A stretch of 64,000 bases of DNA from NCBI GenBank assembly GCA_021307315.1, contig JAJSPD010000100.1, forward strand, positions 80,952 to 144,951, given 5' to 3'. The translations under genes and the position numbers were made by a program. How positions within the stretch are numbered: position 1 is the first letter of the stretch; every line of letters begins with the position of its first letter. Source of the DNA: Bisporella sp. PMI_857 (taxonomy: Eukaryota > Ascomycota > Leotiomycetes > Helotiales > Helotiaceae). The notes beneath the pieces were generated by a model, which saw nothing but the letters and a program-made list of their open reading frames with translations, did no database searches and was not told the origin of the DNA. This document shows positions 30,760 to 59,673 of the stretch, in pieces.

Positions 30760-33700
30760 TCAATCCTGATATAGAATCTCCTTAAAATTATGGGTTGAAT
30801 GGGTAACATGTGATGTTAGTTTACACATAAAACAATAATCGAAATCGAAACAGTCTAAACAGTGGAATCGAGGGCCATATATATCCTAATCTGTTAGAAC
30901 TGCTACGCACGCAAAGACCGGTAGAACTTACGTGCTGACATTCACTACACCGATAGTCTCCGTGCTTTTTTGCTGTTGATATTTCGGTAGAGTTTGGGTA
31001 ACCTAGTAAATCAAGACTTATACTCGAAGTATGTGATCCTTTTCCTGGATCGTACATAATATTCCTGTTTTGATGATATACGGCAATCGCGTAAGGGGTC
31101 CACCGACCTTCTGGTTCGACTGTAGTTATAATAGAGTTGTGAAAATTATTATCCAACAGTAAATTAACGATTTGTGCATTACTACTTCGACAAGCCCAGT
31201 GTAGAGGAGACCAGATTGTGCAGCTTGTTTGAGGCATTTGGTAATATTGAATTGTTCTTTCCACCATGTCAATTGAAGCGCCTGAAGCCGCATAGTGAAG
31301 AATTCCATTTCCTTGTCTGTCAAGGTGGCAAGGATTTGCCCCATTAGATAATAAATAGTCTAGTATGTTGAGATGCCCACCTCGCGCTGCCCAATGAGCT
31401 GCACTTCTCCCTTGGGTATCTATTACGGTAGCTGTGAAACTAATGAAGAACTTTACTATTGCCATGTGGCCATTATAAGAAGCAGCTTGGAGAGCATTGC
31501 CATACTCGCCACCTTGAGTGTTGACATCGGCTCCTTTCTCAATTAGCAGCCTGACTATCGCCTCGTGGCCACCAGCTGAAGCAGCTTGGAGAGCATTGCC
31601 GAAGTGGCCACCTTCTACATCGACCTTGGCTTCTTTCTCAATTAGCAGCCTAACTACCGCCTCGTGGCCTTCGGCTAAAGCAGCTTGGAGAGCATTGCCA
31701 TACTCGCCACCTTGAGTGTTGACATCGGCTCCTTTTTCAAATAGCAGCTTCACTATCGCCTCGTGGCCACCAGCTGAAGCAGCTTGGAGAGCATTGCCGA
31801 AGTGGCCACCTTCTGCATCGACCTTGGCTTCTTTCTCAATTAGCAGCCTGACTATCGCCTCGTGGCCACGAGCTGAAGCAGCTTGGAGAGCATTGCCGAA
31901 GTGGCCACCTTCTGCATCGACCTTGGCTCCTTTCTCAATTAGCAGCTTCACTATCGCCTCGTGGCCATTAAATGAAGCAACTTGGAGAGCATTGCCGAAG
32001 TGGCCACCTTCTGCATCGACCTTGGCTCCTTTCTCAATTAGCAGCTTCACTATCGCCTCGTGGCCACGAGCTGAAGCAGCTTGGAGAGCATTGCCATACT
32101 CCCCACCTTGAGTGTTGACATTGGCCCCTATCTCGACCAGCAGCCTTGCTACCTTCTGGTGACCTAATTCTGCTGCCCAGATTAATGCTGTGTGCTTTTC
32201 TCCATCTTTATCGTCAAGTTTACTCGCTTCAGTTTCTAGAAGGCAACGTAGCACTATATCATGACCATTAAATGCTGCAATTCTAATGTTGTTCATATGT
32301 GGCTGATCGCTCCAACCTCTCCATGCCCCCCAAAGTATAGGGAACCACAAATTGAATCGATCACCCTCTACCAGATTAAGTTTACACGCCTTGGCGAGAA
32401 CTATACTTTCCCTATCAAACGTTGAGTTTCTGAAGTGGCTTGGCCAATGTTGAGCTGAATACTTTAAGAAAGCCTCGAAACCGGATTCGGAGTCTTTATT
32501 TTCTTCGTTAAGGAGCAACTGCCTTTGAGAACGTTTCCATCTTAAGTGTGGCTCGCCCCTCTGTTGATGTCGAACTTCGACTTCGATCTCGTCCAGTTCT
32601 CTCAATAATAAATAGTCTATACAAATACGTGCCATTATATTTTCTGAATCGACAGGGTTTAAACAGTGTCTCCACACGGTACTAGCTATTACGGATTCTT
32701 TTTGGACGAGAAATTCTTTTGCGGTTTGGTGAATAAGATAGATCTTAGAGCGTTTGATAAAGACGAATAATCCACAAAGCTGACGAATAAGTTTTTCGAG
32801 ACGGGCGTCTTCTATCTTGAATTCCATATAAGACTGTGAATTTGGTCGTTCAGCAAGGCCAAATGCGATAGCCATCTCACTTATCGTTAGGGGTCGATAG
32901 GCACCAACAATAATGTGCAGGATCTTGGTAGCCACTGGTTTTTGCCTCTTTGTAATTTTGCCTAATATCTTCTCGTAAGCGTCCGCAACGGATGATGGAA
33001 GTTGAAGCGATTCAACCGACTCCCAATCAGGCCGAAGGCTATCCCGGTATTGTTCTTTAATATCCTCGAAAGCAAGATGTAGCCAAAGATAAGTTCGATG
33101 CTCCATTTGGAAGAGACATTGCTCAAGCGATGTTCTTGTAGAATTACTTAAGGAATGCTCAGCGGCTAACTTTCCTACTCTTTCTCGAATAACTAAATCA
33201 ATTTCTTTATGAATCTTATCATTCTCATGCTCGCCGGATAAGCGTATTGCTGGCAAATTATCTGGAATATCCCGAAAACTAGACTCGATATCATAGTAAG
33301 GACGACTGGTTACGAGAAACTTGAGGGATGTTCTCTGCGAGGCTTGGTGCGATGACTCCTGATAGAAGTTCGACAGAAATCTAATAAGGATTTGACGGTC
33401 GCTTTCTTGGCACTCGTCCATTGCATCAAGCACACAGATTATATCATGTGAGTCTTCATCGGTGGCTGCGTTGATTAAAATATGCCAAAGTTTGTTGTGC
33501 TCTTTTTGAAGCTCTTTATCATTCTTTTCCCACGCATCTATTGCATGTTTAAGAAGCTGGGGTTGTACATCAAACAGCTGGTGTAATAATGAGCATAGAG
33601 CAATAGCAAGCCTGTCTTGCTGTTCGTTATCCTTGAAAAAGAAGTAACAAACCGAACGAGAATCGGAGTTACGAAGTTCTTTCTCGATCAAAGATCGCGA

Positions 33701-35123
33701 TAGCACCGACTTTCCACAACCAGGATCAGCCGAGATCCAGAGCAGGTTGTTCCTTTGGCTGCTTTGCCATTGTATATAGTGACGATGCTCAAGAACCCAT
33801 ACACATGTGCCATCGACTCGTTCTGGGTTATTGTTTTTGAATTCCTCGTAAGTACACACTTTAAAAACTCGGTGACATTCTCGTTGCTGATCGCTCATAT
33901 ATCGTAGTTCCTGTTTTGAGATGCTTTCTTTGTTTTGAGATGCTATTCCTTGGATTTCAGACACAATTTTTTGGAACGCAGCAGAGTCTATCAAATAGAA
34001 GTGAGCAATGACGCATTTTATTTTCCACTATGTAAATGAGAAGTCGACTAATAGACTTAATGTCATCACTAAAACCTAGAGCTCCTTGAATAATGCTAGG
34101 ACGTATTTATCGAGAATTTAGCCCTTAAACGCCGAGCCTTGTAACTCACCTATTTGTGGCACCTTAGGTACGAGTCCTTCCAGGACCACGGGTTTGAGCG
34201 TAAGCAGAAACTCTTTTCCAAAAGCCGCTGCGGCAGCTGCCGCATATCGATGCCACATCCAGTTCTTATGGCCATCGGCATAGTCGGCAATACCCCGTAT
34301 TACAAGACATCTTGTATCATCTATTATTCCAGCAGCTTCCATCTCGAAACAACGAGCGTTGTGGTACAATTTGCTCATATTATCTCTCTCAATGCCATTC
34401 TGCATCACGCTATTGCCAGATATAATAGTACTCCGGTGGTATATCAAGCTTGTTGAAACCCTGTCTGGTCGACGGACGGTCATTTGCATATCGCAATTAG
34501 AGCAGTCTTTAGCATTGCCATGCCGATATGTCGCCTCGAAAAGCCTATCGTTGTGTACACCTGGATGTGTAAATTTGGCATTCTTGGCTACAATCTCACG
34601 GAGGTGATGATCAAACTTAGTGTCGCCGCACTCGTGATTAGTTACAACCGATCCTAGAGCAGAAAGGAGTCTGCGATCCGGTTTATTGAAATTACTAGTA
34701 TTTTCGTAGCTATGGCCTTCTAGACGGCGTCCAAAGTCCCACTGGATAATTGCAGGAGCACCAATAGCCTCGGAGTACCCAATAACCACATCTCCCAAGT
34801 GGATATCATCTTCAGCATTCTCGCAAGGAGGAGAGTGTGGCACTCCGCCACCAATCCCAACAAACAAATAGATCTTGAGATTTAGGAAACTTCGACTCAT
34901 TGGTGCGACTAATCTGGACGCAGACACCAGACCCGGCTGACCAGGTGGTAGACACGCTATAACAATATTGTGTCCACCAATGGACCCGAAATAGTATGAA
35001 TTCTCATCGTCAACAATTCGAGGTGGCTCTTCATAGCGCTCATCAAGTGCCAAGCGTGCCGCAACCTGTTCGCGGCAAACCGCAGAGCCATGCGACGGTA
35101 TATTGATCTGCGGACGTTGGCAT
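30760..35123 (-). CDS. PNP-NACHT-ankyrin-ZZ NOD-like receptor, N-terminal frameshift
   Basis: Exons (complement): 34150-35123, 30932-33987, 30760-30885; introns 162 and 46 nt. Exon 1 encodes a purine-nucleoside-phosphorylase-like domain (YTVAWLCGLP start, VGIGGGVP, CFEMEAAGI, GIADYADGH). Exon 2 has a NACHT P-loop (ADPGCGKSVLS), Walker B-like IICVLDAMDE, LVTSRP, then about 11 ankyrin repeats. Exon 3 restores a ZZ-type zinc finger: CSEC before the intron, then YGPRFHCLDCFDFDYCFMC. Such proteins are putative fungal immune or incompatibility receptors, with the PNP-like domain as effector. The frame between the ATG at 35123 and the rest is off by 2 bp at a CCGCG run (about 35071-35076), so this copy is either a fresh pseudogene or carries a sequence error. 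Confidence 0.85.
31490..32130 (-). repeat. 99-bp ankyrin-coding tandem array
   Basis: About seven 33-codon units share GNALQAASA.GHEAIVKLLIEK. They alternate between endings GAKVDAEGGHF and GADVNTQGGEY, and vary at the residues before GHEA (AR, FN, AG, AE, YN), which lie on the ankyrin ligand-facing surface. Nearly identical units imply recent expansion or gene conversion. Confidence 0.9.
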
Positions 35124-37979: not shown

Positions 37980-40900
37980 CTAGGCTAGGCAGGCGGAGCG
38001 GAGAAAGTTCCTCGAAAAAGGAGGTTTCCTTCCACACTGAGTGAGCTTATAGGCTCCTTCTGGAGTGCCGAGAAGCTCTGAAATGTCGTGGAACGGGTAG
38101 CGTGAGGATAGAGGGTTTGTTGATCTGCGGCGTGCTATGCGACAGAAAAAGAAGTGGACGGGCGTTTTTAGGCGGCCACAAAGGCAATTAGGTTCAAATA
38201 CAGCATGGTTGAATCGCTCGCGGTAAGCTGAGAAGTCCCCGTGGCCGCTGCGCGCGGCTATCAGGTGTCCTAAAGCTTTCCGGGGCAGCGAAAGCTCTTT
38301 TGGGGGCAACAGAGCTGTGGAAATTGGGATCGTCTGATACGAGATAGGAGCATTAGCCAGCCACCATTTGAGGTGTTTTTGAGGGAGTTGTGCAGCTATA
38401 TAGCGTTTTAAAGACGCCCAGGAGTGTGGGGAAGAGGCCGGAGGAGGAGGTTGCAGCGCTCCGCGGCGGGCAAGAGCGTCGGCGAGTTCGTTGCCCGGCA
38501 CTTGAGAGTGCCCTGGAACCCAGCGGACCCGGATTGTTCCTTTGCGAGGACGAGCTGCTCAATCTGCTTGTAAAGCGCAAGCTTCTTGGAAAGTGTCGGC
38601 TGACGAGCCGAGAAAAGGAGTAAAAAGCCGTAAAGCGACTTCTTGGTTGTCGAGGCAAATCCAGATATTTGTAGCGTGGTAAGCAGCTCTACAGGACATA
38701 GTATCTATGATTCCGGCGACGGCAGCTCGAGCCTCAGCATCAAAGACTTCGACATGGTCCCCGTAAGCGATTGACGCTTCGGTGATTTTGTTTCCATGTT
38801 GAAACGCAATGTAGCCTCCGCCTGCAATGCCTGTTGCGAGCTTGGAGCCGTCTGAGTAAATTATTATGTCATTGTGTGGAATTGAGTCTAAGAAAGTTTG
38901 GAAAAGAACCGCGGCCTCTTGTCGAGTGAGTAGCGGTTTTTCTCGGGTACATGCCCCGATTCGGAGCTTAGCAGCTATTCTGCTTTCTGGAGTATGCCAA
39001 GGAGGAAGCTGTATCGAGTTCAGCTGTTCTGTTGGCGGGAGAGCCAGCCAGCGCCGAGCATGTCGCGGCGTAAGCCGTGTGACGCGTCGAGCTGTTCGGC
39101 ATGCTTTTGCACGTGCTTTAAGAGGATGTCGGGGGTCGAGGCGGTAAATACGAGCTGAATCCTTGAGTGCTAAGGAGTCTAGCAGGTGTTCTGGAAGAGG
39201 GATTCCGGCTTCTCTGTGTAGAATCGGAAGAGGGGTAGTTCGGTAGACTGGCAGTATTGCTCTGGCACTTGAGATTAGTGCTTTTTGAAAAGCTTTTAGG
39301 ATCCCTTGTTGGCTGTTGCTGATAAGCCTGGATTCAAAGTGTTTTGTAGCTCCTGGCCACCAAGTTTGAGCCCCATAAAAAGCTACAGGTAGCACGCATG
39401 CTGTTACTGCACGCCGGAGCAATGCTGGAGAAACTCCTCGGGCCGTGTTTCCAAGTCGAGCGAGAGCCTGGCTAATACCAAGAGCTTTTGAAGCTTGGTT
39501 AAATGCGTGAGCTCTGAATTGAAGTTTGCGGTCAAAGATAACTCCTAGCCATCGAATCTGAAAGTTTGGAGTAACTGTTATTGTGCTTGTGACTACCGGA
39601 GGAGAGATTGATTGGTCACGTTTTCGGGAAAAGTGAATAAGCTCTGTTTTGTCTGGGTCGAACGTAATTCCTTCTTCTTTTCCCCATTCGAGAGCTTGCT
39701 CGAGTCGAGCCGATAATTTTTCGGCATTTTCGGTCAGTGAAGACGAAATCTCGAGTTTTGCGCCATCGTCTGCGTATCCAAAGTTTTTGCGAGGGTTGTC
39801 GAGAGAAAACAACGGAGCGATATATAGCATAAATAGGATTGGAGATACTGGGGAGCCTTGAGGGAGCCCGCAGTCGATTTGAGTTTCAGGGCCTACTTCT
39901 CCGTCTAAGCCAATATGAACTCGCCGGCCGGTTGCAAAAGAAATAATCCACCGAACAAGCAAGTCTGGCCAGCCTTGTTCTCGAAGCCTGCGAGCCAGCC
40001 GACCGGGGAGTACTGCGTCAAAAGCTCCTTTTATGTCGTACGTCAGCATTGAAGCGACTTTGCCTTGAAGAAGCGCTATTTCGACGTCGTAAGTGAGGCA
40101 GGTAGTTAAGTCCGTAGCTGAGCGAAGCGGGAGAGCGCCGAACTGCTGTTTAGTTAAAACTTTTGAAGTTACAGCGATCCATGCTATTCTTTTAGCAATT
40201 AGTCGTTCGAGGCCTTTTCCTAGAACCGAGAACAGTGCAATTGGCCTGTACGAGCCAGGAGAAGAACGGTCCGGCTTTTTTGGCTTGCTGAGGATTGCAA
40301 GAACTGCTGTACGGAAACATTTAGGGTGGTGTCCAAGCTGGAGGCATTGGCGGTATAGTGTAACAACTAGTGGGCGGATTAGGGGCCAAGCTAGCCGTAG
40401 AACTGGCGTCGGGATCTCGTCTTTGCCAGGAGCTGTATTGCCGGCTTGTAAAATTGAAGTCTCGATTTCGTGGTCTGTGATGTCGGGAAAAGCTAGAGAA
40501 GTGCGAGGAATTGCCGGTGCAGAGAAGGGGATATCTCCGGCTTCGGCGGCGTTCCTTAGTAGATTGCGAGTTAGGACATTTCTTTTTTCCTGTGGTAAAA
40601 CAGCTAGAGGTGCGCCTGGTCTTGTAGGATCCTTCAACGGAGGGGTCCTGAACGAGCCTGTGGACGTATGCCATTTTGCCATTTTGAACACGTTTTTGCT
40701 TGTTGCAGTATTAAGCATTTCGCGGTAGTAAAGGTCTTTAGCTCGCCGTACAGTGTTCCGTAGTGCTTTTTTTACTTCGGAACAATCGTCTGATATACGG
40801 CGTGCTTGCCGGAAGTTTTTAGCGGCTTCAGAGCATTCTGTAGTCCACCACGGGTTTCCGATAGAGCATGCATAAGAGCGTTTGGCTGACTTTGCATAGG

Positions 40901-41807
40901 CTTTTTGGATTTGGCTGGTGAGCTTGCTGGCGTATATGTCGAGCTCTGACGGGTTTTGAGGGGTTCTTAGTTGCTGAACTGGCTTTATGTGCGCTTCCAG
41001 AGTTTTAAGAAAGCTTTCTTTGTTAAGTGTGGCTAGACGAAGTGGGGTAGTTGGTTCGCGGTGCCGGGGGTCCCAGTATACTGTCGAAAGCAGTGTACGG
41101 TGGTCTGAGCTAGTTTCTAAGTCTTCTGACATTTCTGTAGCTATCCCGAGAGCTTCCAGCTCGGAAGTCGCGAAAGCTAGATCTAGAACGTTTCCTCGGT
41201 TATGAGTAGCTTCGTTTGTGCTAGAAGATAGTGTAAAGTCGAGTGAGTCTATCCAAGTAACAAAGTCTGACGCTGCTGCATTTGGGTTGCTGTCGAGCGA
41301 TGGCTGCCAGCGGTGATGGTGGAGATTAAAATCTCCAGCGATAAGTGTTAAACGTGGAAAGAAAGTGTTTGGGAGCGAAGTAAGAGACCGGGCAGCTTGT
41401 CCTGTTCTAATAGCGTTAATAGGAGCGTTGTAAATGTTTACAATAAGGAAAGACTGGTTATAAGGAGTAGACAGTGTGAGAAACAAAAGGTCGGGAGTTC
41501 CGGGGTCGTTAGGCTGCAGTGGTCGAAGCTGTACAGCTTTTAACCCTACGCCTTTCCGCTGATATGTGAGTACCCGTGGAGAAATAGTCCAGTTGTCTAC
41601 CGGAGAAAATGTTTCGTAAGAAGAGTGGCGTTTTGTGATTCGCCGAGCTAAGTCTTGTGTGTAAATGTACGGCTCTTGTATTAAAAGAATATCGATTTGG
41701 TTTAGAAATGCTAGATTCAATGCAATTTCGTGATTTGTAGAGCACTTGTTCACGTTGACTTGCATTATTGTGAGTGGGGGCCGAGAGCGGCGGCGTTTAC
41801 TTGGCAT
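37980..41807 (-). pseudogene. LINE ORF2 (endonuclease-RT-RNase H) with one in-frame stop
   Basis: 1,276 codons with a single internal TGA at 38559-38561. Residues 12-245: apurinic-type endonuclease (IQEPYIY, AGDFNLHH, SSDHRTL). Residues about 470-760: reverse transcriptase with SYRPIALFSVLGK, YDIKGAFDAV, CGLPQGSPVSP and the catalytic GYADDG at 677-682. RNase H starts at about 980 with YSDGS and continues past the stop into WVPGHSQVPGNELAD; the C terminus has a CLCG...HFFF zinc-type segment. The frame is the same on both sides of the TGA, and TGA fits a former CGA (Arg). Removing this one change would leave a full-length frame. Confidence 0.88.
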
Positions 41808-42566
41808 TAGAAGCTTCTGCGGCTAATTGGCTGCTTGGGCTCGCAGTTTCCGGCTCTGCAGCGTCAAGGTCCATAGCAGTAGTTCCAAAGCTTCTTTTTC
41901 TTGTAGCATAAGGAGCCGTAGTTGTGTGCTTGCGGCGGGTTCGTACAGAAGTGGTAGCTTGGCTGGGGGCGAGAGAGCTGGTAGTTTGGCTGGGGACGGG
42001 AGAGCTTGTAGCCTGGAAAGTGCGTAGAGCCTGAAGAGCGCTAGGCGCTGGTATTGTTGAGGTAGTCGTGCTGGAAGTAGCGGAGCTTTCCTGACGTGCA
42101 GCGGCTTCGGTGTGAATAGGGGGCTGGCTGCAAGGGATTTGCACCGGCGGGTTGGTTTTGCAGTGAGCGGCTTTTAGTTGTAGCCTGGCTGCTGAGCCGG
42201 CTTGTCGGAGCCGGGCTACTTCTGTTTTTGGGGGGAAAGGAGTGCCCGGCTTAGGTCGAAGAGGGCACTCGGGAGCATCCGCTGGATGAGGGCCGTGGCA
42301 GTGTATGCACCGAGGGGGGCACTGGTGTGCGTGTGACGAGCAAGCTTTGTGTGAATCCTCGAGGTGCTCGATCGAGCCACAGAGGCGGCAGCGAAGAGGG
42401 CGTGCGCAGGAACGTTTGTTGTGCCAGAGAAAGCATCGGCTGCATTGTACGACACTAACTTTTTTAGGAAGAAGCCTGGCAGTTGCCCTGCAGCCGAACA
42501 ATATTAGAGATTTAGGGAAAGAGATAGACGAGTTTACTCTGACTATCCAAGAAGTCGGGTAGTCGT
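41797..42566 (-). pseudogene. LINE ORF1 (gag-like), 5' truncated
   Basis: The open frame is continuous from the element edge. It contains PTSWIVRV, then LILFGCRATARLLPKK, then cysteine/histidine knuckles (CSRCFLWHN, CRLCGSIEHLEDSH, CPPRCIHCHGPHPADAPEC), typical of Tad-clade RNA-binding ORF1 proteins. A Ser/Thr/Pro-rich C-terminal half follows. The last codons overlap the ORF2 start in ATGCCAAGTAA (11 bp), suggesting coupled re-initiation. The N-terminal part is missing. Confidence 0.8.
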
Positions 42567-42754
42567 AGTTAGACTGCGAACTGGGGTCCCACGGGGCGGG
42601 TTTTCACCTACTTGACCCCACCCGTTGGGGTCCCACCCCATGGGTCGGGGTCTATCAAAAGCACCCACCCCACCCCATGGGGTTTTGATGGGGTGCCAAG
42701 CACCCATTACATTTACACGTGATATTACAATAGTTTCTGTAAAGTTAGAGAAAT

Positions 42755-42788
42755 TCTACTAATAAGTCTACTAATAAGTCTACTAATC
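42755..42788 (+). repeat. 12-bp tandem TCTACTAATAAG, nearly 3 copies
   Basis: Units at 42755 and 42767 and a partial unit at 42779, just inside the left end of hAT-2; could be subterminal protein-binding sites. Confidence 0.7.
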
Positions 42789-42908
42789 AAAAAGATACGC
42801 GATATAAACGTATTAAAGCTTTGGTTTGCGAATTTTATTATATGCTTAGCGCTCTATCGCTAGCGTGTATACCTTTAATAACCCTTTGTATGAACTACGT
42901 TTGATTCT

Positions 42909-43446
42909 TTAACCCCGGCCTAGGTACTTATAGCCCGTCATTCCATCTCTCATTCTTTGAACCAAATGCATATCCTTTACCTGAATAGTAACTCTCTTAG
43001 CGTGGATTGCGGCAAGATTTGTGACTTTAAAGTAAGATTAGTATAAAGATTAGTATAATGTATTTATATGAAATAACTTACGTTCAAACTCAGTTACCAA
43101 AGCAGATTCTGCGGCTTCTTGGAGACATTGTAGAGCACTGAGTTGAATGCGAAATGCGTGTCGAGACGTAACGTCATACATTATTTCCTTAACTAGTCGA
43201 GTAAATGGAGCCTTTGGGATTAAAAGCTCAGTGCTTTTTTGGTACCGTTTGATTTCTCTAAGTGCTTTGGCTACGTTTAAATGTTAGTTTTATACTAATC
43301 ATTATATTAATCAACATACTGCCAGGTTTCATTCGATATTTCCTTTTTGGTACAGCTTTTGCAGAGGTTTTGGCAGAGGTTTTGGCAGGGGTTTTGGCAG
43401 AGGGTTTGCGAGCAGATTTGGTAGCTGTTTGTTTGGTACGTGCCAT
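42909..43446 (-). CDS. Histone H3 variant encoded within a transposon
   Basis: Three exons (complement): 43320-43446, 43082-43270, 42909-43024; introns 49 nt (GTATGT...CGTAG) and 57 nt (GTAAGT...AAAG). Spliced length 143 aa, no stop. The tail starts [14 protein letters not shown] (K4, K9 and S10 kept; R8 replaced by Thr), followed by SAKT/PAKT repeats instead of the canonical K14-K27 region. The fold is complete: [10 protein letters not shown] (alpha-N), PFTRLVKEI (alpha1), LQEAAES (alpha2), [14 protein letters not shown] (loop 2 and alpha3 start). Loop 1 is two residues longer than canonical H3, the length found in CENP-A. QEAAES lacks the usual Cys, and the C terminus replaces GERA with an 11-residue extension. 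KRVTIQ matches fungal H3. Divergently oriented from the next gene; about 500 bp separate the starts, with probable 5'-UTR introns at about 43448-43495 and 43575-43650. Confidence 0.88.
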
Positions 43447-43946
43447 TGTAACCTATTTAGATTAGAATAAATATTAGTATAATACAGAATGATATGTACC
43501 TGTGCAAAGTAGCGAAAAGAATTAGAAAAGCTGAAGATGAAAGTGAAGTTATAGCTTTGTGATTTCGACGAGAAGACTATAAAGAATTAGTATAATGATT
43601 AATATAAATATAGAATATAAAAAAGATAAATATAATACATACTTGTGTATAGTATAGTTGTTGGTAACTTTAATTGAAAGTTAAAAGAAGTCAAGTTGAG
43701 AAAAGTAGTTGGGTGCCTTAAAATCGAGGCATCAAAACTCGACTGCCTTATTTTTCAGGATAACGCGTACTTTTCCTCATTCATCATTTTTGCACCAACT
43801 TATTAAATCAGAACAAAGTCAAATATCTATCGCAGTACGTGTTTTTGGTGTACTATATTAATCTTTATACTAATTTTTGAAGCTCTAGTTCTTGCGAGTT
43901 GAAATTTGCAAAATACGCTTACGTTTCGGTTGCGTTCCTTTCCAAT

Positions 43947-45251
43947 ATGGCTTCCTCTTCTGAAAATCAACTTCAGCAGGTAATTTTTATGGAAATATTA
44001 TATTAATCTGTATACTAATCGGTTTAAAGGATATTATTGTCATTTCTGATGATTCAGATCATGAATTTGATATGGATCTTGATTCTTCGCAGCAAATCGG
44101 TTCTTCCAATAAACGCAAGCGCAAATCTCCGGGCAGTTTTTCTACCAATGTGCATACTGTTAAGGCTAGAAAAAGACTTGAAGCTATAAAAAGCAACAGT
44201 ATTCAGAATCAGATCGAAAAAGCGAAAGCCGCAGATCAAGCAGCAGTTACATACAGAAAAAAAGTCCTCAAAAAGTCTGCTGAATTTGCACTCGCATCTT
44301 TTGCCGAGCAGAAGCGAATGATTGAGCAGTCTGCTTTGCAGGTTAAAACAAAGCGGTTCGTTTGATTTTAATTATACTAATTTTTATACTAACCTGTATA
44401 GTGAACGGGATGGCAAAGATTGGAAATCTGTGGCAAAAGCTTTGGGTTATGGAGAAATTGGTGGCCTATATGCAATTGATGATGATGGAAATCCAGCATG
44501 GGAAGATATTGAGTATGATTCGGAAGACGAATACGAGTTTGAACATATGTGGAGATTAGATGAAAAGCAAAACGGAGATAAGGCGGTTGTCGGCAAAACT
44601 GCTAAGGAGTTGAAAAATGACGGGATTGCTAAGCATAAACGATCTATTCTAGTAAGTTTCAGATTAATATAATGATTAGTATAACGCTAATACAATTTTA
44701 GGATGCCAAGAAGCTTGAATTTAAGTTTTGGCAAAGAAAATGGCGCCGAAGCCGTCGATCCTTGTTCCGCAAAATCCGAAAGCTTTCTGCTGGTGGACAG
44801 GAATACTTGGAAAGAACAAGCTGTCCTTACATTTACAAGAAGTATAAATTTCTACTAATTTTTATACTAATCTGCTAACTGATATAGCAAATTCTATGCG
44901 TATAAAACTCCTACAAGATACTTTACTCAAGGAGAAAAAGCAGTTTGGAAAAATCTTGCAGCATGGGCATACGGAAATGAAGAGTGGATCGATCTGCCGG
45001 GCCCTGCAAATTGGTGGCCAGCCGACGATAAGTTAAATGAGACAGGATTCGGCTTTTCCGATTCGTTGACAGGTCATAAAGAAGCGTTTGATATGGTATA
45101 TGCTACGGAAATTCCGGAAGATGGATCGTACGAACGTATTTTCCCCGCTTATAATGATTTGTTTTTGATGACAGACAATTCTTTAAGTCAAACAATCGTT
45201 AAAGCATTCTTTGGCTTACAAAGCAGCTTTCAAAAGCCGCGTAAGCTGTAA
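43947..45251 (+). CDS. hAT-2 accessory protein with SUMO-interaction-like motif
   Basis: Five exons: 43947-43979, 44030-44355, 44402-44651, 44702-44841, 44888-45251; introns 46-50 nt. The phases agree throughout, giving 370 aa. Residues 12-21 are DIIVISDDSD, a textbook SUMO-interaction motif (hydrophobic core followed by Asp/Ser). Then comes a basic NKRKRK cluster, a Lys/Ala-rich coiled-coil-like stretch (about 60-115), an acidic block (EDIEYDSEDEYEFEH), a basic RKWRRSRRSLFRK segment, and a Trp-rich C-terminal half (NWWPADD). No known domain. The composition suggests a nuclear, chromatin- or DNA-associated protein. Position between the H3 gene and the transposase suggests it belongs to the element. 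Confidence 0.75.
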
Positions 45252-45488
45252 ATGTATATGTAGTTTTTAAGTATATACAATAAATGAAGCAGGGAACTTT
45301 AAGCGATATATTAAATTTTATACTAATCTTTATACTAATCATTATATTTTACATTAATTTTTGGAAGTTTAATTATAGCCTTTCATTTGTACGATTTTTT
45401 TTGAATTAGTAATTTAATTTGTTGTTTAAATACTTGGTTTTTCTTTCCGATTTGATGCTTTTTTTTTTACTTGCACACTTTCGTTGCT

Positions 45489-48299
45489 ATGGAGTCAAGT
45501 ACTTCGCAAGACTTTTCTGATCCTTTCAGCTCATTTGAGCTAAATACTTCTGACAATTTACCATTTTCGCAAATTGGTCCAAAAAACCTATATTTTCGAT
45601 GGAAACCCGAATATCACGATAAGTTTGTGGAATGGTGGTTAAGTACACAATGGGCAGTTCAAGCTGTTGCAAACCAATCAATTGATTTGGTAAAGCAATT
45701 GAATTGGGAATCTCAAAATCGAAAATCTATTGCCTGGAAACAATTCGATCAAGGAATACACCGGATCACCGGAGAGCCTAAAGTCATATGTCAAAACTGC
45801 AACAAGGTTCTCGCACATCCAAATACGCGGAATACCGGCACAAAAGCTTTGTCTGGTCATATAGCGTCTCGGCAATGCCTTGTTTATTCTAGCCAGAGTA
45901 ATACAAGGCAGAGAAAAGTGGAAGACATGTTTCACGCTATTTCTGTAAGTAGATTAGTATAAATATTAGTATAATGTCTAATATTAATAGCAACCAATCT
46001 TTACGAAGCAAGCATTTCACGACCAGGTCCTTGCAACTATTGTTTCACTTCGTACTTCTTTCCGCGCGGTCGAAAATCCTGAATGGAGAAAGCTAGCTGT
46101 TATGCAAAATCCAAATTTCGAACTTCCTTCTGCAACAACTATGAAGAATCGACTAATGGAACAATCAGTCAAACTTGAACAAAACATGCTTTCAAATGTT
46201 GTTCCTGGAAGCAAAATTGCAATTTCGCTTGATTGCTGGTCTAGTACAACAAGACTATCATTTATGGGTATAATAGCTCACTATATTGATAAGTCATGGG
46301 TTCTTTGTCAAGAATTAATAGGATTTGAAAGTTTGGTAGGCGTTCATTCCGGAAATGCTCTTGCTCAAGTTATCAATAACGTATTTCAACAGCACAATCT
46401 TTTTGATCGTGTTGTTTCAATTACAACTGACAATGCAAGTTCGAATACTACAATGGTTCTCGAAATCAACGGATACTTACAAGAAGCTTTGAAAGCTAAT
46501 AGTATTCTGAAAAAGAAAGTCCAACACGTGCCGTGTTTATCGCATGTGATTCAACTTAGTCTTCAAGCACTTTTGAGCTTTGTTCAATTGAGACCTACCA
46601 ACGAAACATTTGTTCGGAATTGGGTAGCAGAAAAGGAGCTGTCTGATCTTGAGAAAATCAAAGCTAGCAACAAACGTGGTATTCCATATATACTAGCAAA
46701 GGTATGTAACACGTGACTTTTATACTAATTTTTATACTAATCTTATATTAGATTCGAAAGCTTGCTATTCTTGTCAATTCCAGTGCACAGCGGAAACATC
46801 GGTTTCAAAGAGTTCAACAAGAACAAATCAGAGATTCATCTTCTCCGAATGATCCAGTTCTTACATTGTTAATTGATGTATGCACTCGATGGGACTCAAC
46901 AGTGCATATGATTCTTCGTGCATTGCGTCTTAAAGAGTCTATTAATCAATTTTGCGGTGCATATGATCCTGCTAAGCCTTTTTCATTTTCTGCATTGGAA
47001 TGGAAAAAAATTGGCTATCTAGCCGATTTGTTACGTCCTTTCAATTTTTTTACAACAACAATCGGCAAAACAACAAGCGTAACATTGCCTTATGCTTTAT
47101 CAATTTACGATGAGTTGTTTGAACACTTGCAAGAATCTCGCCGAGTATTAACCAAAAGTCTGTTGCTCAACTTTGGGTAAAAGATTTAATTGGTGCGATT
47201 AACGCTGCAGAAGCCAAGCTTGATACTTACTATAACAAAACATATAGTAGTCTTGGTAGTTTATATGGCATCGGAGCAATTCTTGATCCAAAATCGAAGC
47301 TGAAAAGCTTTGAAGAAGATTATTGCTGGCTTAATTTCAAAACAGTTGATTGGGCCAAAGAATTCGAGCGTCAATTTCGGTCGTTATACGATACGGAATA
47401 TAAAGAAAAGTCTACGAATGCTGACCGACTTTCTCAAATTCGAGAAGTTAATCACGATCCTTTAGCGTTAGCATTAAGTCGCAAGCGCTTTACTCGAGAC
47501 ATTCAGAACCCTTATCGCAAAGATGATGACTTTTCTCTTTCTGAAGTTGATGAATGGCTGGCTATGAGTATGTTTACAATTCTACTTTTTATACTAATTT
47601 TTATACTAATCTTTGTGTTGTTTTTTCAGAGCCTGATAATCGATCACCGCTACTTGTTTGGAAATCGCTTGAAACACAGCTTCCTGGCTTATCAGCAATG
47701 GCTAGAGACTTACTTTGTATCCCGATGGCCGGTGTTGGAGTAGAACGTGCTTTTAGCTTTGCACGTGATATATGCGGATATCGCCGTGGCCAGCTTCAAC
47801 CGACAACTATTCGGTCGCTTCTTTTGGTTTATCATTCGCTCGTTGAACATTCACGAACACGTGAGCTTCAAAATATACTATTTTCAACTATTGATATTCA
47901 GGATATGACCTTGAAGATATGGAAACGGAAATTAGAACGCGAGAAAAAGACCTTGAAATTCAACTTGATCAAATTGATCTTTGGGAAAATCATGACTATA
48001 TTAGTGATGAAGAACCAGAAGGAAACGAAGAAATTCGAACTCGTCGTGCTCAAGAACGCTGGGATTACAAGATTTCTAAATCTTTACGTCAGTCAATTCA
48101 TCAAAATCAGCCACTTTCGACTATTCAGTCTCAAAATACACTTCGGAATCGCCGCGAACCGTCAATTGAAACAACGAACTGGGAACTATCTAGTAATAGT
48201 AGTCAAGAGCTACCTCGACTTCCGACTCCTGATATTGGTGATATTGTGCCGGATACTCCAATAGGCATTCACAGGTCAAAAAGGCAAAAAAGAGATTAG
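45489..48299 (+). CDS. hAT-2 transposase with one frameshift
   Basis: Exons: 45489-45944, 45991-46701, 46752-47567, 47630-47860, 47902-48299. Introns are 46, 50, 62 and 41 nt; the last could instead be a frame slip. Zinc finger C101-x2-C104 ... H124-x5-C130 (BED-like), then the hAT core: SLDCWSSTTRLSFMGII, TTDNASSNTT, PCLSHVIQLS, and the C-terminal dimerisation region with IPMAGVGVERAFSFARD. Exon 3 is one base short of the length required by its phases. Translation shows the break at about 47143-47146 (QESR then SINQKSVAQLW), so this copy needs a 1-bp correction to encode about 870 aa. The C-terminal tail is acidic and ends HRSKRQKRD. Because only one lesion is visible, the element may have been active recently. 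Confidence 0.82.
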
Positions 48300-49000
48300 T
48301 TTTAGAATATTGTCACGGCTCTGGTTTTTCATCGCTTGGAGCATAGCACCGGATACCTCAAAAGCTCGGGCGGAGCTTACTACCGGATGCTTATAGCTTC
48401 CGGCCAGTTACTGTATATAGAGCTTTGCTTTTTTTTCTTTCTCTGTCCGTAGCTTGTTCTTTTAGTCATTACAATTGATAGTTGTTTACACTTTTGAGTC
48501 TATCTACCTAAATATACGGATCGAGATCCTTATTCAACTTGAGTTGTTACAAATATTAGTGTTGTATATTATTATAATTCACAATTTTTTTACTACATTA
48601 CAATATGTTTGGATTTAACATTTGAAGTTTAATTTTTATACTAATCTTTATACTAATCAACAACTTTGCATTTAAAGTATGTTTGTAAAAATAAGTATAC
48701 AAAATAGCCTTGTTTAACCTGTGTGCACATAGAAAAATCAATGCCAAGACTAGAAAGAACCATCTCGATACTAGAATACCCTATATATTCTTAAAATTCT
48801 GCCAGTCCGCCTTACATTCTTGTAGAGGGGTTTGACTGTAGTTTCTATATTTAGTTAATATTGTCGGGGCCCCATTGGGGTCCCGCGGGTCGGGGTCAAA
48901 ATACACAACCCACCCCACGGGGGAAGCGAGCCTCGAAGACCCGACCCATGGGACCCCGTGGGTCGGGGGCCCCGGCCCGCCCCGTGGGTTTCTGCGCAGT
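48300..49000. other. 3' region and right end of hAT-2
   Basis: AT-rich 3' sequence including TTTATACTAATCTTTATAC at about 48632-48660. From about 48865 the GC-rich right terminal repeat takes over. No further gene. Confidence 0.6.
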
Positions 49001-50248
49001 CTAACTGCTGGTCATGGTCTTGTCGTGATCCGGTCCGTGTGCATTTTGATTTTCAGTCAACTCTGCAGCTGTGGTGGCGAGCCGCGGCGACTTTAGGACC
49101 TCAACGACTTTGTCTCGGCAAGGCAAGGGCCGCGGGAGGAGATCTGTGGGCCTAACTTCTTGCGGAACATCGTATGTCGGCGAGAATCGATAAATCTTCC
49201 CCTGGTAAATAACCATGCCGTTCTTCTTGTCAATCTCCATTCCGATGTCGTAATGATGGAGTACGCCAGCGAATGGCTTGTCCAGCTCGTCGAAAAGATG
49301 TTTCCTGATGGTCGGGTTTGGAATCAGCTTTAACAGCAGTATATGTAGCTCCAGCCACCCAATCAGCAACCAAGCATCCCTTTTGCTTGTAGCCTCGTAT
49401 TGTCTGGCCTCCACAAGGGTTCCCACTCCATGTTGAGACATCAAAAAGAGGTCCTTACTAAAATGTTCTGGCATTGTTCTGGGCTCGCCAGAATCGTTGA
49501 ATGTGCTCGACTGAAAGAGTACAATCTGAGACCACTCAAAAATTGTCCACAGTCTTGCGGAGAATTTTGCATAGGTGAACGCAAAACGGCACTCCCTGAT
49601 CAACTTTGGAACTCTGTAAAGCATCTTCTCAAAATACTTGTCCTCTGTCTCACTGCGCGGAGCTTGTGGCAGACATGTCCAGTCGGTCCAGACGTATGAC
49701 CATTGCTTCTTTTCCCTACGCAAGGTCTTCGATATTTCTTTGTAGTCTACGCCTTGGGGGTCGGGGTCGTCCTGGGTGTGCCAGTAATGGCTGACGAAGA
49801 AGCTATCTTTGCTGTCGCAAAAGCCTTCTACGATGGGCATAATGACGTAGCTGTCTAGTTCTTTCGGGTCCCATTTCCGAAATTTGCCGTGTTTAAGGAA
49901 TGATTCTTTCGTTTGAAAGAACCAGAATGCGTAAATACTTTTCATTACGTCTTCAACAGTGGAGAAAGAGTTCAATAACCTCGTGTATTGAGCAATGTCG
50001 GCATCCATCTGGGCTTTGGTCGTGTATACAGAAGGCTGAAGCGAGCGCCAGGCTGAAATGCTCCTTGTAACGAGTGATTTGAAATCTAAAAACGATGAGA
50101 ATGAGCTTTCTGTATATCTCCGCGACCGAGTCTGTGATGGTGGGGATATTCGAGACCTACCATTCTCAACAGGACTATTGGCAGTTGAACTGACCACTCT
50201 GGCCTGCATTTCGGATTTTTGTGAGAACAGCTTTCGTAGCCACGGCAT
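49001..50248 (-). CDS. TIR-like-fold candidate protein
   Basis: Single exon; ATG at 50246-50248 gives 415 aa (MPWLRKLFSQ). The core has SFFVSHYWHTQDDPDPQGVD, YVWTDWTCLPQAPRS, and CRFAFTYAKFSARLWTIFEW. This order (beta strand with SH.W, then W.D..CLPQ, then a strand and W..EW) is shared with fungal and plant proteins of a TIR-like superfamily, in which signalling or NAD-related roles are suspected. The assignment is by pattern only. The stop codon TAG and the last codons lie within or next to the right terminal repeat of hAT-2, so the natural C terminus may have been altered by that insertion. Confidence 0.5.
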   Translation of the reverse strand: MPWLRKLFSQKSEMQARVVSSTANSPVENGRSRISPPSQTRSRRYTESSFSSFLDFKSLVTRSISAWRSLQPSVYTTKAQMDADIAQYTRLLNSFSTVEDVMKSIYAFWFFQTKESFLKHGKFRKWDPKELDSYVIMPIVEGFCDSKDSFFVSHYWHTQDDPDPQGVDYKEISKTLRREKKQWSYVWTDWTCLPQAPRSETEDKYFEKMLYRVPKLIRECRFAFTYAKFSARLWTIFEWSQIVLFQSSTFNDSGEPRTMPEHFSKDLFLMSQHGVGTLVEARQYEATSKRDAWLLIGWLELHILLLKLIPNPTIRKHLFDELDKPFAGVLHHYDIGMEIDKKNGMVIYQGKIYRFSPTYDVPQEVRPTDLLPRPLPCRDKVVEVLKSPRLATTAAELTENQNAHGPDHDKTMTSS

Positions 50249-59057: not shown

Positions 59058-59673
59058 CTTCGGAAATCGAACTAGTCGAGATAGTATTAGCAGTGATCCA
59101 TTTGAAGAGCCTGTTGATCATGAAGTAGATCAGTATTTGTCACTTCGTAAGTTAGTTTTTTTTTGGGTTATATTCGGTTAATTCTGTTTTTATACTAATC
59201 TTTATACTAATCTTGGTAACAGCAAACGACAACAGACAAATACTCAAAGTGTGGAAAGATCTTGAGCCTCGACTTCCAGGCTTAGCAGCTTTAGCAAGAG
59301 ACATTCTGTGTATACCTATGGCTAGTGTTGGCGTAGAGCGAGTCTTTAGTTTCGCTAGAGATATTTGCCACTATCGCCGAGGGCAGCTAAAACCTAGCAA
59401 TTCGTATACTGATTTTGGTGGTATTATGATCAAGTTAAGAATCATAGTATCGACGATCAGCATATAGCTTTGTCGTGCAACATAGAAGTTGCTGATATGA
59501 CTGACGAGCAAATTGCAATTGAGTATCAACAACGAGAATCTGAAATTGATTTAAGTTATCAACGAGCCAATGATTTGGATAACAATCTGTATATAAGCGA
59601 TGAAGAGGGATTTGGCCAAGCTGCTCGTACAGCTCTACAAAAAAGCCGTTTAGAATATATTAGCCGGCTGTAA
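59058..59673 (+). pseudogene. hAT transposase C-terminal fragment related to hAT-2
   Basis: Exon pieces 59058-59146 and 59223-59673 are separated by a 76-nt intron (GTAAGT...AACAG) at the same position as hAT-2 transposase intron 3. They encode NDNRQILKVWKDLEPRLPGL, ARDILCIPMASVGVERVFSFARDI and RRGQLKP, then a frameshift, then DEQIAIEYQQRE..NNLYISDEEG. Similarity to residues near the end of the hAT-2 protein is clear. The upstream gene is missing. Confidence 0.75.

What the first reader, a model, noticed from the sequence alone, without database searches (positions are those of the whole stretch)
42909..43446. A full histone H3 variant gene inside a hAT transposon
The minus-strand gene splices in frame into a complete H3 histone fold. 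Its canonical ARTKQTA start keeps K4, K9 and S10, the tail is remodelled and SAKT-repeated, loop 1 is two residues longer as in CENP-A, and the C-terminal extension is novel. It lies between the inverted repeats of a hAT-type element beside its transposase. I know of no described transposon carrying an H3 gene. A self-encoded H3 could mark element chromatin, evade silencing, or target insertion to particular (for example centromeric) nucleosomes. The sequence and location are direct; function is inference.
Basis: partly seen in the sequence, partly recalled or inferred. Interest (0 to 1): 0.96.

Follow-up and report, generated by a model that had tools for sequence, protein, structure and literature searches.

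The report
Jumping gene carrying its own histone
A transposon in the fungus Bisporella carries, besides its transposase gene and a gene of unknown function, a gene for an altered histone H3 that is not a recent copy of the host's H3 and that likely serves the transposon by changing how its DNA is packaged; similar elements are already in print from other fungi.

Summary
Window 42570-49003 is a 6434-bp hAT element with imperfect inverted ends, holding an H3-variant gene (-), a middle gene of unknown function (+) and a hAT transposase gene (+). A near-identical copy on contig C221 has a perfect 8-bp target duplication, so the H3 gene is inside the mobile unit. The host is Bisporella sp. PMI_857.

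The claim that no such transposon is known fails. Manning 2013 describes hAT elements of Pyrenophora tritici-repentis with transposase, central ORF and H3-like gene; Dhillon 2019 describes H3-bearing hATs in Mycosphaerellaceae. Both read them as capture of an H3 gene.

New here: grouping this H3 with the host's H3 is rejected (p-AU 0.00024). It groups (100/98) with nine fungal H3s from Leotiomycetes and Talaromyces that share core changes seen in 0, 0 and 2 of 103 other H3s. The middle protein's only database relative is in Tricladium, which also has such an H3. All ten predicted introns carry a 12-bp-period motif almost confined to this element family.

I read it as an old, element-owned histone; how it helps the element is inferred. 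Context in other species, transcription and selection could not be tested.

The parts
42570..49003 (.). whole hAT element, window copy, 6434 bp
   Evidence: alignment to the C221 copy (99.5% over 6450 columns) ends at these bases; C189, C258 and C47 share the right end, C14 the left
42570..42600 (+). left terminal inverted repeat TAGACTGCGAACTGGGGTCCCACGGGGCGGG
   Evidence: shared with C221, C14 and the small derivatives
48974..49003 (-). right terminal inverted repeat, TAGACTGCGCAGAAACCCACGGGGCGGGCC on the minus strand (imperfect match to the left one)
43320..43446 (-). H3-variant gene, coding exon 1 (tail)
43082..43270 (-). H3-variant gene, coding exon 2 (alpha N to alpha 2)
   Evidence: PF00125 match
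42909..43024 (-). H3-variant gene, coding exon 3 (alpha 3 and C-terminal extension, stop)
43453..43499 (-). predicted intron in the 5' untranslated region of the H3-variant gene
   Evidence: GT...AG and motif dimer, by eye; no transcript seen
43947..45251 (+). middle gene, five predicted exons (43947-43979, 44030-44355, 44402-44651, 44702-44841, 44888-45251), 370 aa, function unknown
   Evidence: no Pfam match at E<=1; one relative, P0121 of Tricladium, 41% over 345 columns
45489..48299 (+). hAT transposase gene, four predicted exons (45489-45944, 45991-46701, 46752-47567, 47630-48299); the window copy has one-base frame lesions in exons 3 and 4
   Evidence: Dimer_Tnp_hAT 2.3e-10; zf-BED 0.048, below its cut-off; lesions against C221, which has one of its own in exon 1
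43037..48658 (.). TTATACTAAT units in pairs 12 bp apart: one pair in each of 10 predicted introns, further pairs or single units between and after the genes
   Evidence: 29 units with at most one mismatch in 2242 non-coding bases of the element, 0 in 4192 coding bases (one single unit lies further left, at 42754); 35 genome-wide hits of the pair, 31 in this family

Best explanation
Window 42570-49003 is a hAT transposon that carries a diverged histone H3 gene, a gene of unknown function and a hAT transposase gene, and its H3 is likely an element-owned histone that would pair with host H4 and form altered nucleosomes that keep the element's DNA open to its transposase. Shown: the anatomy, the mobility of a sister copy, that this H3 is not a recent copy of the host's H3 or CenH3, and that it shares a set of core substitutions with nine other fungal H3s. 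Inferred: that those nine are also element-borne, that the protein is made, that it enters nucleosomes, and what it does there. The proposed working: the conserved core keeps the H4- and DNA-binding residues, while the shared changes L103E, D106L/M and A127V (H3 numbering) alter the surface where, from recall, two H3 copies meet and the chaperone Asf1 binds, and the loss of R63 removes a recalled DNA contact. The variant would then form its own tetramers, or looser nucleosomes, on or near the element. My odds: about 0.7 that it is an element-owned H3 lineage, about 0.35 for the open-chromatin mechanism given that.
For: Two near-identical copies (C3, C221) with intact H3 and middle genes; 8-bp duplication ATGTTGAT flanks C221. 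Ten H3 variants on one side of a branch at 100/98, and 87/89 without five signature columns. Grouping with host H3 rejected, p-AU 0.00024. L103E and D106L/M in 10 of 10 variants and 0 of 103 other single-domain H3s; A127V 10 of 10 against 2 of 103; R63 kept in 0 of 10 against 99 of 103, the other 4 having K. H113, A114, R116, V117, T118, D123 and L126 invariant in all ten. The middle protein's only relative among 2414 candidates is in Tricladium, which also has an H3 variant on three contigs. In the host's 14 matches to this H3, those of the variant type lie only in element copies; the rest are the host H3 and two CenH3-like loci. ESTs of the H3-like gene of the P. tritici-repentis element are reported.
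Against: No genomic context was visible for the nine other variants; only Bisporella's is shown in a transposon. The ten were picked by me from two capped lists. K9 and S10 are kept in the Bisporella tail, so escape from K9 methylation by losing the target is not supported; the K4 and K9 positions are kept in 5 of the 9 variants with a start, by eye. C3 and C221 differ by three amino-acid changes and no silent change in H3, which gives no sign of recent constraint. Four element copies are RIP-altered, so the histone did not shield them. Neither assembled full copy has an unbroken transposase frame. Small derivatives move, or moved, without an H3 gene of their own. Both structure predictions were too poor to use.
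Confidence: 0.4

Rival explanations
1. Passive cargo: the element captured an H3 gene by transduplication, as both papers propose, and the gene has drifted since without use.
For: Published reading for P. tritici-repentis and Mycosphaerellaceae. Three amino-acid changes and no silent change between the two Bisporella copies. The tail is poorly conserved.
Against: Drift would not give the same L103E, D106L/M and A127V in ten proteins of two classes, with the H4- and DNA-facing residues invariant. The middle gene, also intact, goes with an H3 variant in Tricladium. Recent capture from this host is rejected.
Confidence: 0.2
2. A host H3-variant family exists in some Pezizomycotina, and only the Bisporella element has picked up one member.
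For: The other nine variants are annotated simply as histones, and I saw no context for them.
Against: Bisporella has no variant of this type outside element copies. Tricladium has its variant on three contigs and the middle-gene relative as well. P. tritici-repentis has the same three-gene layout.
Confidence: 0.2
3. The histone is a tether or decoy: it links the transposase complex to host nucleosomes to guide insertion, or it ties up H3 chaperones and so disturbs silencing in general.
For: Altered residues lie, from recall, on the Asf1 and H3-H3 surfaces (positions). The middle protein has an IIVISDDSD stretch like a SUMO-binding motif (motif recalled; sequence).
Against: No interaction data; the motif is not in the annotated Tricladium protein.
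Confidence: 0.15
4. A CENP-A mimic that steers the element to centromeres.
For: Loop 1 is longer in the Bisporella protein; all ten variants next to CenH3 is not rejected (p-AU 0.287).
Against: Bisporella variant with CenH3 alone rejected, p-AU 0.0003. Loop length varies among relatives; the W84 of the two CenH3s compared is absent in 7 of 10 variants. Best solved-structure matches are ordinary H3.
Confidence: 0.05

Closest known systems
H3L-carrying hAT element of Pyrenophora tritici-repentis (Manning et al. 2013, PMC3538342)
   Same: [quoted passage not shown] H3L is neither H3 nor CenH3 and has tail insertions
   Different: About 5.6 kb against 6.4 kb, 10 long and 16 short copies against two intact ones here; sequence kinship not tested because the H3L sequence was not among the listed hits
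H3-carrying hAT elements of Pseudocercospora, Cercospora and Sphaerulina (Dhillon et al. 2019, PMC6710886)
   Same: hAT with 8-bp duplications carrying H3-like sequence; RIP of copies
   Different: About 9.5 kb, one or two H3-like copies without introns, all RIP-inactivated, read as a captured transcript. Here the H3 gene has introns at other places than the host H3 gene and is intact in two copies
Histone H3 and CenH3 of the host
   Same: Complete H3 histone fold by sequence; about 57% identity to the host H3
   Different: Separate group in the tree, signature substitutions, different intron places
hAT superfamily (hobo, Activator, Tam3)
   Same: TIRs, 8-bp duplication, C-terminal dimerisation domain
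   Different: Two further genes; BED finger only a weak match

Membership tests
hAT superfamily | 8-bp target-site duplication | tested here: met
   C221 copy ATGTTGAT and 4 of 5 small derivatives; not the window copy, nor the C232 derivative
hAT superfamily | hAT dimerisation domain in the transposase | tested here: met
   PF05699 2.3e-10, 40.6 bits against a cut-off of 21.4
hAT superfamily | BED-type zinc finger | tested here: inconclusive
   PF02892 E 0.048, below cut-off
hAT superfamily | catalytic DDE residues | not tested
   not examined
H3L-hAT elements of Manning 2013 | transposase, central ORF and H3-like gene between TIRs | tested here: met
H3L-hAT elements of Manning 2013 | sequence kinship of H3-like and central proteins with the P. 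tritici-repentis ones | not tested
   those sequences were not on hand; absent from the 120 rows listed and, for the middle protein, from the single hit, neither of which shows absence
recent capture of the host H3 gene | groups with the host H3 | tested here: not met
   p-AU 0.00024
recent capture of a host H3 transcript | no introns | tested here: not met
   two in-frame introns in the coding part
CenH3 / CENP-A | groups with CenH3 | tested here: inconclusive
   Bisporella variant alone rejected (p-AU 0.0003); all ten variants beside CenH3 not rejected (0.287)
CenH3 / CENP-A | located at centromeres | not testable with these tools
   needs chromatin data
element-borne H3-variant lineage proposed here | H3 variant lies in a hAT in other species too | not testable with these tools
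   no DNA context of fungal proteins held; two scans of viral contigs found no relative

The most novel reading that the evidence does not exclude
A lineage of fungal hAT transposons has carried its own dedicated histone H3, with a private H3-H3 interface, since before Leotiomycetes and Eurotiomycetes parted, together with a partner protein, and builds element-specific nucleosomes; the published 'captures' of H3 by hATs in other fungi would be branches of this one old lineage and not separate captures.
Probability: 0.3. Interest if true: 0.85.

Novelty: new member of a known kind. Interest (0 to 1): 0.58.

Why it matters
Transposons rarely carry core histone genes. If this H3 is a working, long-kept part of the element, a selfish element makes its own nucleosome part, and the two published cases of H3 'capture' need another reading. 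It would be a natural test of which H3 surfaces control silencing, assembly and partner choice, with a four-position signature (103, 106, 124, 127) to test in a laboratory yeast.

Tried and rejected
Recent capture of the host H3 and plain CenH3 origin: rejected for the Bisporella protein by tree tests. dN/dS among copies: not usable, because the diverged copies differ from the window copy mostly by C>T and G>A (C189 721 of 733 substitutions, C47 212 of 213, C14 71 of 82, C258 53 of 62, aligned blocks of 200 columns or more), and C3 against C221 offers three coding sites. Structure prediction of the Tricladium middle protein (mean pLDDT 42) and of the H3 variant with ten sequences (57): too poor, no fold search run. 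Scans of viral contigs for the middle protein and the H3 variant: 8 and 50 stretches matched a pattern, none confirmed. Contig lengths as a proxy for linkage: the Tricladium middle protein (contig of 521878) and H3 variant (three contigs, longest 1902397) were not shown to share a contig. A branch-point reading of the intron motif: it occurs in both orientations, so it cannot be branch points alone.

Selections: the ten H3 variants were picked by eye from the 120 rows listed in each. The 103 others are the host H3 and 102 of the other 186 listed histone proteins; 84 longer than 185 residues were dropped. The tree has 26 rows chosen by me. Intron borders in the script were off by a few bases; the corrected ones are in the parts list.

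Papers: PMC6710886, abstract, background, results and the first of two parts of the discussion; PMC3538342, twelve passages and the first of two parts of the transduplication section; PMC4994206, two reference-list passages only. Searches run: over open-licence PubMed Central text only. I found no third H3-bearing hAT report in their listings; most subscription papers are not held.

Full report
What it is. The window lies in contig C3 of a 55.6-Mb fungal genome, and its H3-variant protein is in public data as Bisporella sp. PMI_857, on a contig with the length of C3. The element runs from 42570 to 49003, with ends TAGACTGCGAACTGGGG... and ...TTTCTGCGCAGTCTA. From left to right: the H3-variant gene on the minus strand, and on the plus strand a middle gene of five predicted exons and a hAT transposase gene of four. 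The H3-variant and middle genes are divergent.

Copies. A second full copy on C221 aligns over 6450 columns at 99.5%, has the same three genes and is flanked on both sides by ATGTTGAT. The window copy has GTCGTAGT on one side and ACTGCTGG on the other, so its flanks were probably rearranged after insertion. C189 (cut by the contig end inside the H3 gene), C47 and C258 (partial) and C14 (left part with the H3 gene, three in-frame stops in the main exon) are damaged; nearly all their differences from the window copy are C>T or G>A, mostly at CpA and CpT, as expected of RIP. Five small derivatives of 709 to 1140 bp share both ends; four have identical 8-bp flanks; none of their contigs gave an H3-variant match. 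The transposase frame is broken by one-base differences in both full copies, in different exons, whereas the H3 and middle genes are open in both; assembly error cannot be excluded.

The histone. It has 143 residues with all parts of the H3 fold by sequence; the best solved-structure matches are ordinary H3. The host has its own H3 on C35 and CenH3-like loci on C24 and C80, the latter with stops. Introns of the host H3 lie in the tail and near the end; those of the host CenH3 in the tail and in alpha 1; those of the element gene at alpha N and at the end of alpha 2.

Kin. Two protein searches listed nine further H3s of the same type: Hyaloscypha 69%, Stromatinia 66%, Tricladium 62% and others down to 53% in Talaromyces. 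On a tree of 26 globular domains the ten lie on one side of a branch at 100/98; dropping five signature columns leaves 87/89. Holding the Bisporella variant with the host H3 is rejected (p-AU 0.00024), as is holding it with CenH3 (0.0003); all ten beside CenH3 is not (0.287). Positions 103 (E), 106 (L or M) and 127 (V) are shared by 10 of 10 variants and found in 0, 0 and 2 of 103 other single-domain H3s; M124 is in 10 of 10 against 27 of 103, and R63 is lost in 10 of 10. Tails differ: K4 and K9 positions are kept in Bisporella, in Tricladium from its second methionine, and in three Talaromyces, and lost in the other four with a start (by eye).

The middle gene. No Pfam match. One protein among 2414 candidates matches: P0121 of Tricladium varicosporioides, 41% over 345 columns. 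Tricladium also has an H3 variant, on three contigs. Search sensitivity is limited to shared five-residue words, so other relatives may exist.

The intron motif. Each of ten predicted introns (one in the 5' untranslated part of the H3-variant gene, two more in that gene, four in the middle gene, three in the transposase gene) holds one pair of TTATACTAAT units 12 bp apart, in either orientation; there are 29 units in 2242 non-coding bases and none in 4192 coding bases. In the whole genome the pair occurs 35 times with at most one mismatch, 31 of them in this family, against 0 for the reversed control; of the other four, one stands just before an exon that reads like a hAT dimerisation region (window 59190, by eye) and one just after a hAT transposase match on C249. 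It may be a binding site for an element protein; that is a guess.

What is known. Manning et al. 2013 report in P. [quoted passage not shown] the protein fitted neither H3 nor CenH3, and drift was suggested. Dhillon et al. 2019 report hundreds of RIP-inactivated, intronless H3-like copies in hATs of Mycosphaerellaceae and infer capture of a transcript. So the kind is known. The Bisporella element adds a member in another class with an intact, intron-bearing gene, and the tree and signature argue that its H3 is an old lineage and not a recent copy.

Most likely working. Shown: the gene travels inside a hAT, and its protein keeps the fold and the residues invariant in H3 at the DNA- and H4-facing end of alpha 2 and alpha 3. 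Inferred: it pairs with host H4; the shared changes give it a separate tetramer or chaperone surface (contacts recalled); and variant nucleosomes keep the element's DNA open for transposition. Against this stand the kept K9, the RIP of sister copies and the lack of expression or context data. I put 0.7 on an element-owned H3 lineage and 0.35 on the open-chromatin mechanism given that; the stated 0.4 is for the explanation as a whole, weighted to the first part.

Noticed in passing
43037-48658 and 59190-59211: Pairs of TTATACTAAT units 12 bp apart sit in all ten predicted introns of the element and in an intron-like stretch of another hAT-like gene in the window; genome-wide 35 hits, 31 in this family.
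   Followed up: partly
L036-L040 (C249, C232, C228, C110, C68): Small derivatives of 0.7-1.1 kb with the same inverted ends, four of five with perfect 8-bp duplications.
   Followed up: partly
G000 C80:5697-6063 (L003): A second CenH3-like locus beside the intact one on C24, with in-frame stops.
   Followed up: no
37980-42501: A LINE-like retrotransposon with endonuclease and reverse transcriptase, on the minus strand, ends just before the hAT element's left end.
   Followed up: no
30821-35053: An NLR-like pair of frames: NACHT/NPHP3 with ankyrin repeats, and a nucleoside-phosphorylase domain.
   Followed up: no
P0020, residues 1-18: The annotated start of the Tricladium H3 variant (SIILVRSIILIF) could be a read-through of the same TTATACTAAT motif upstream of the true start; back-translation only.
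   Followed up: no
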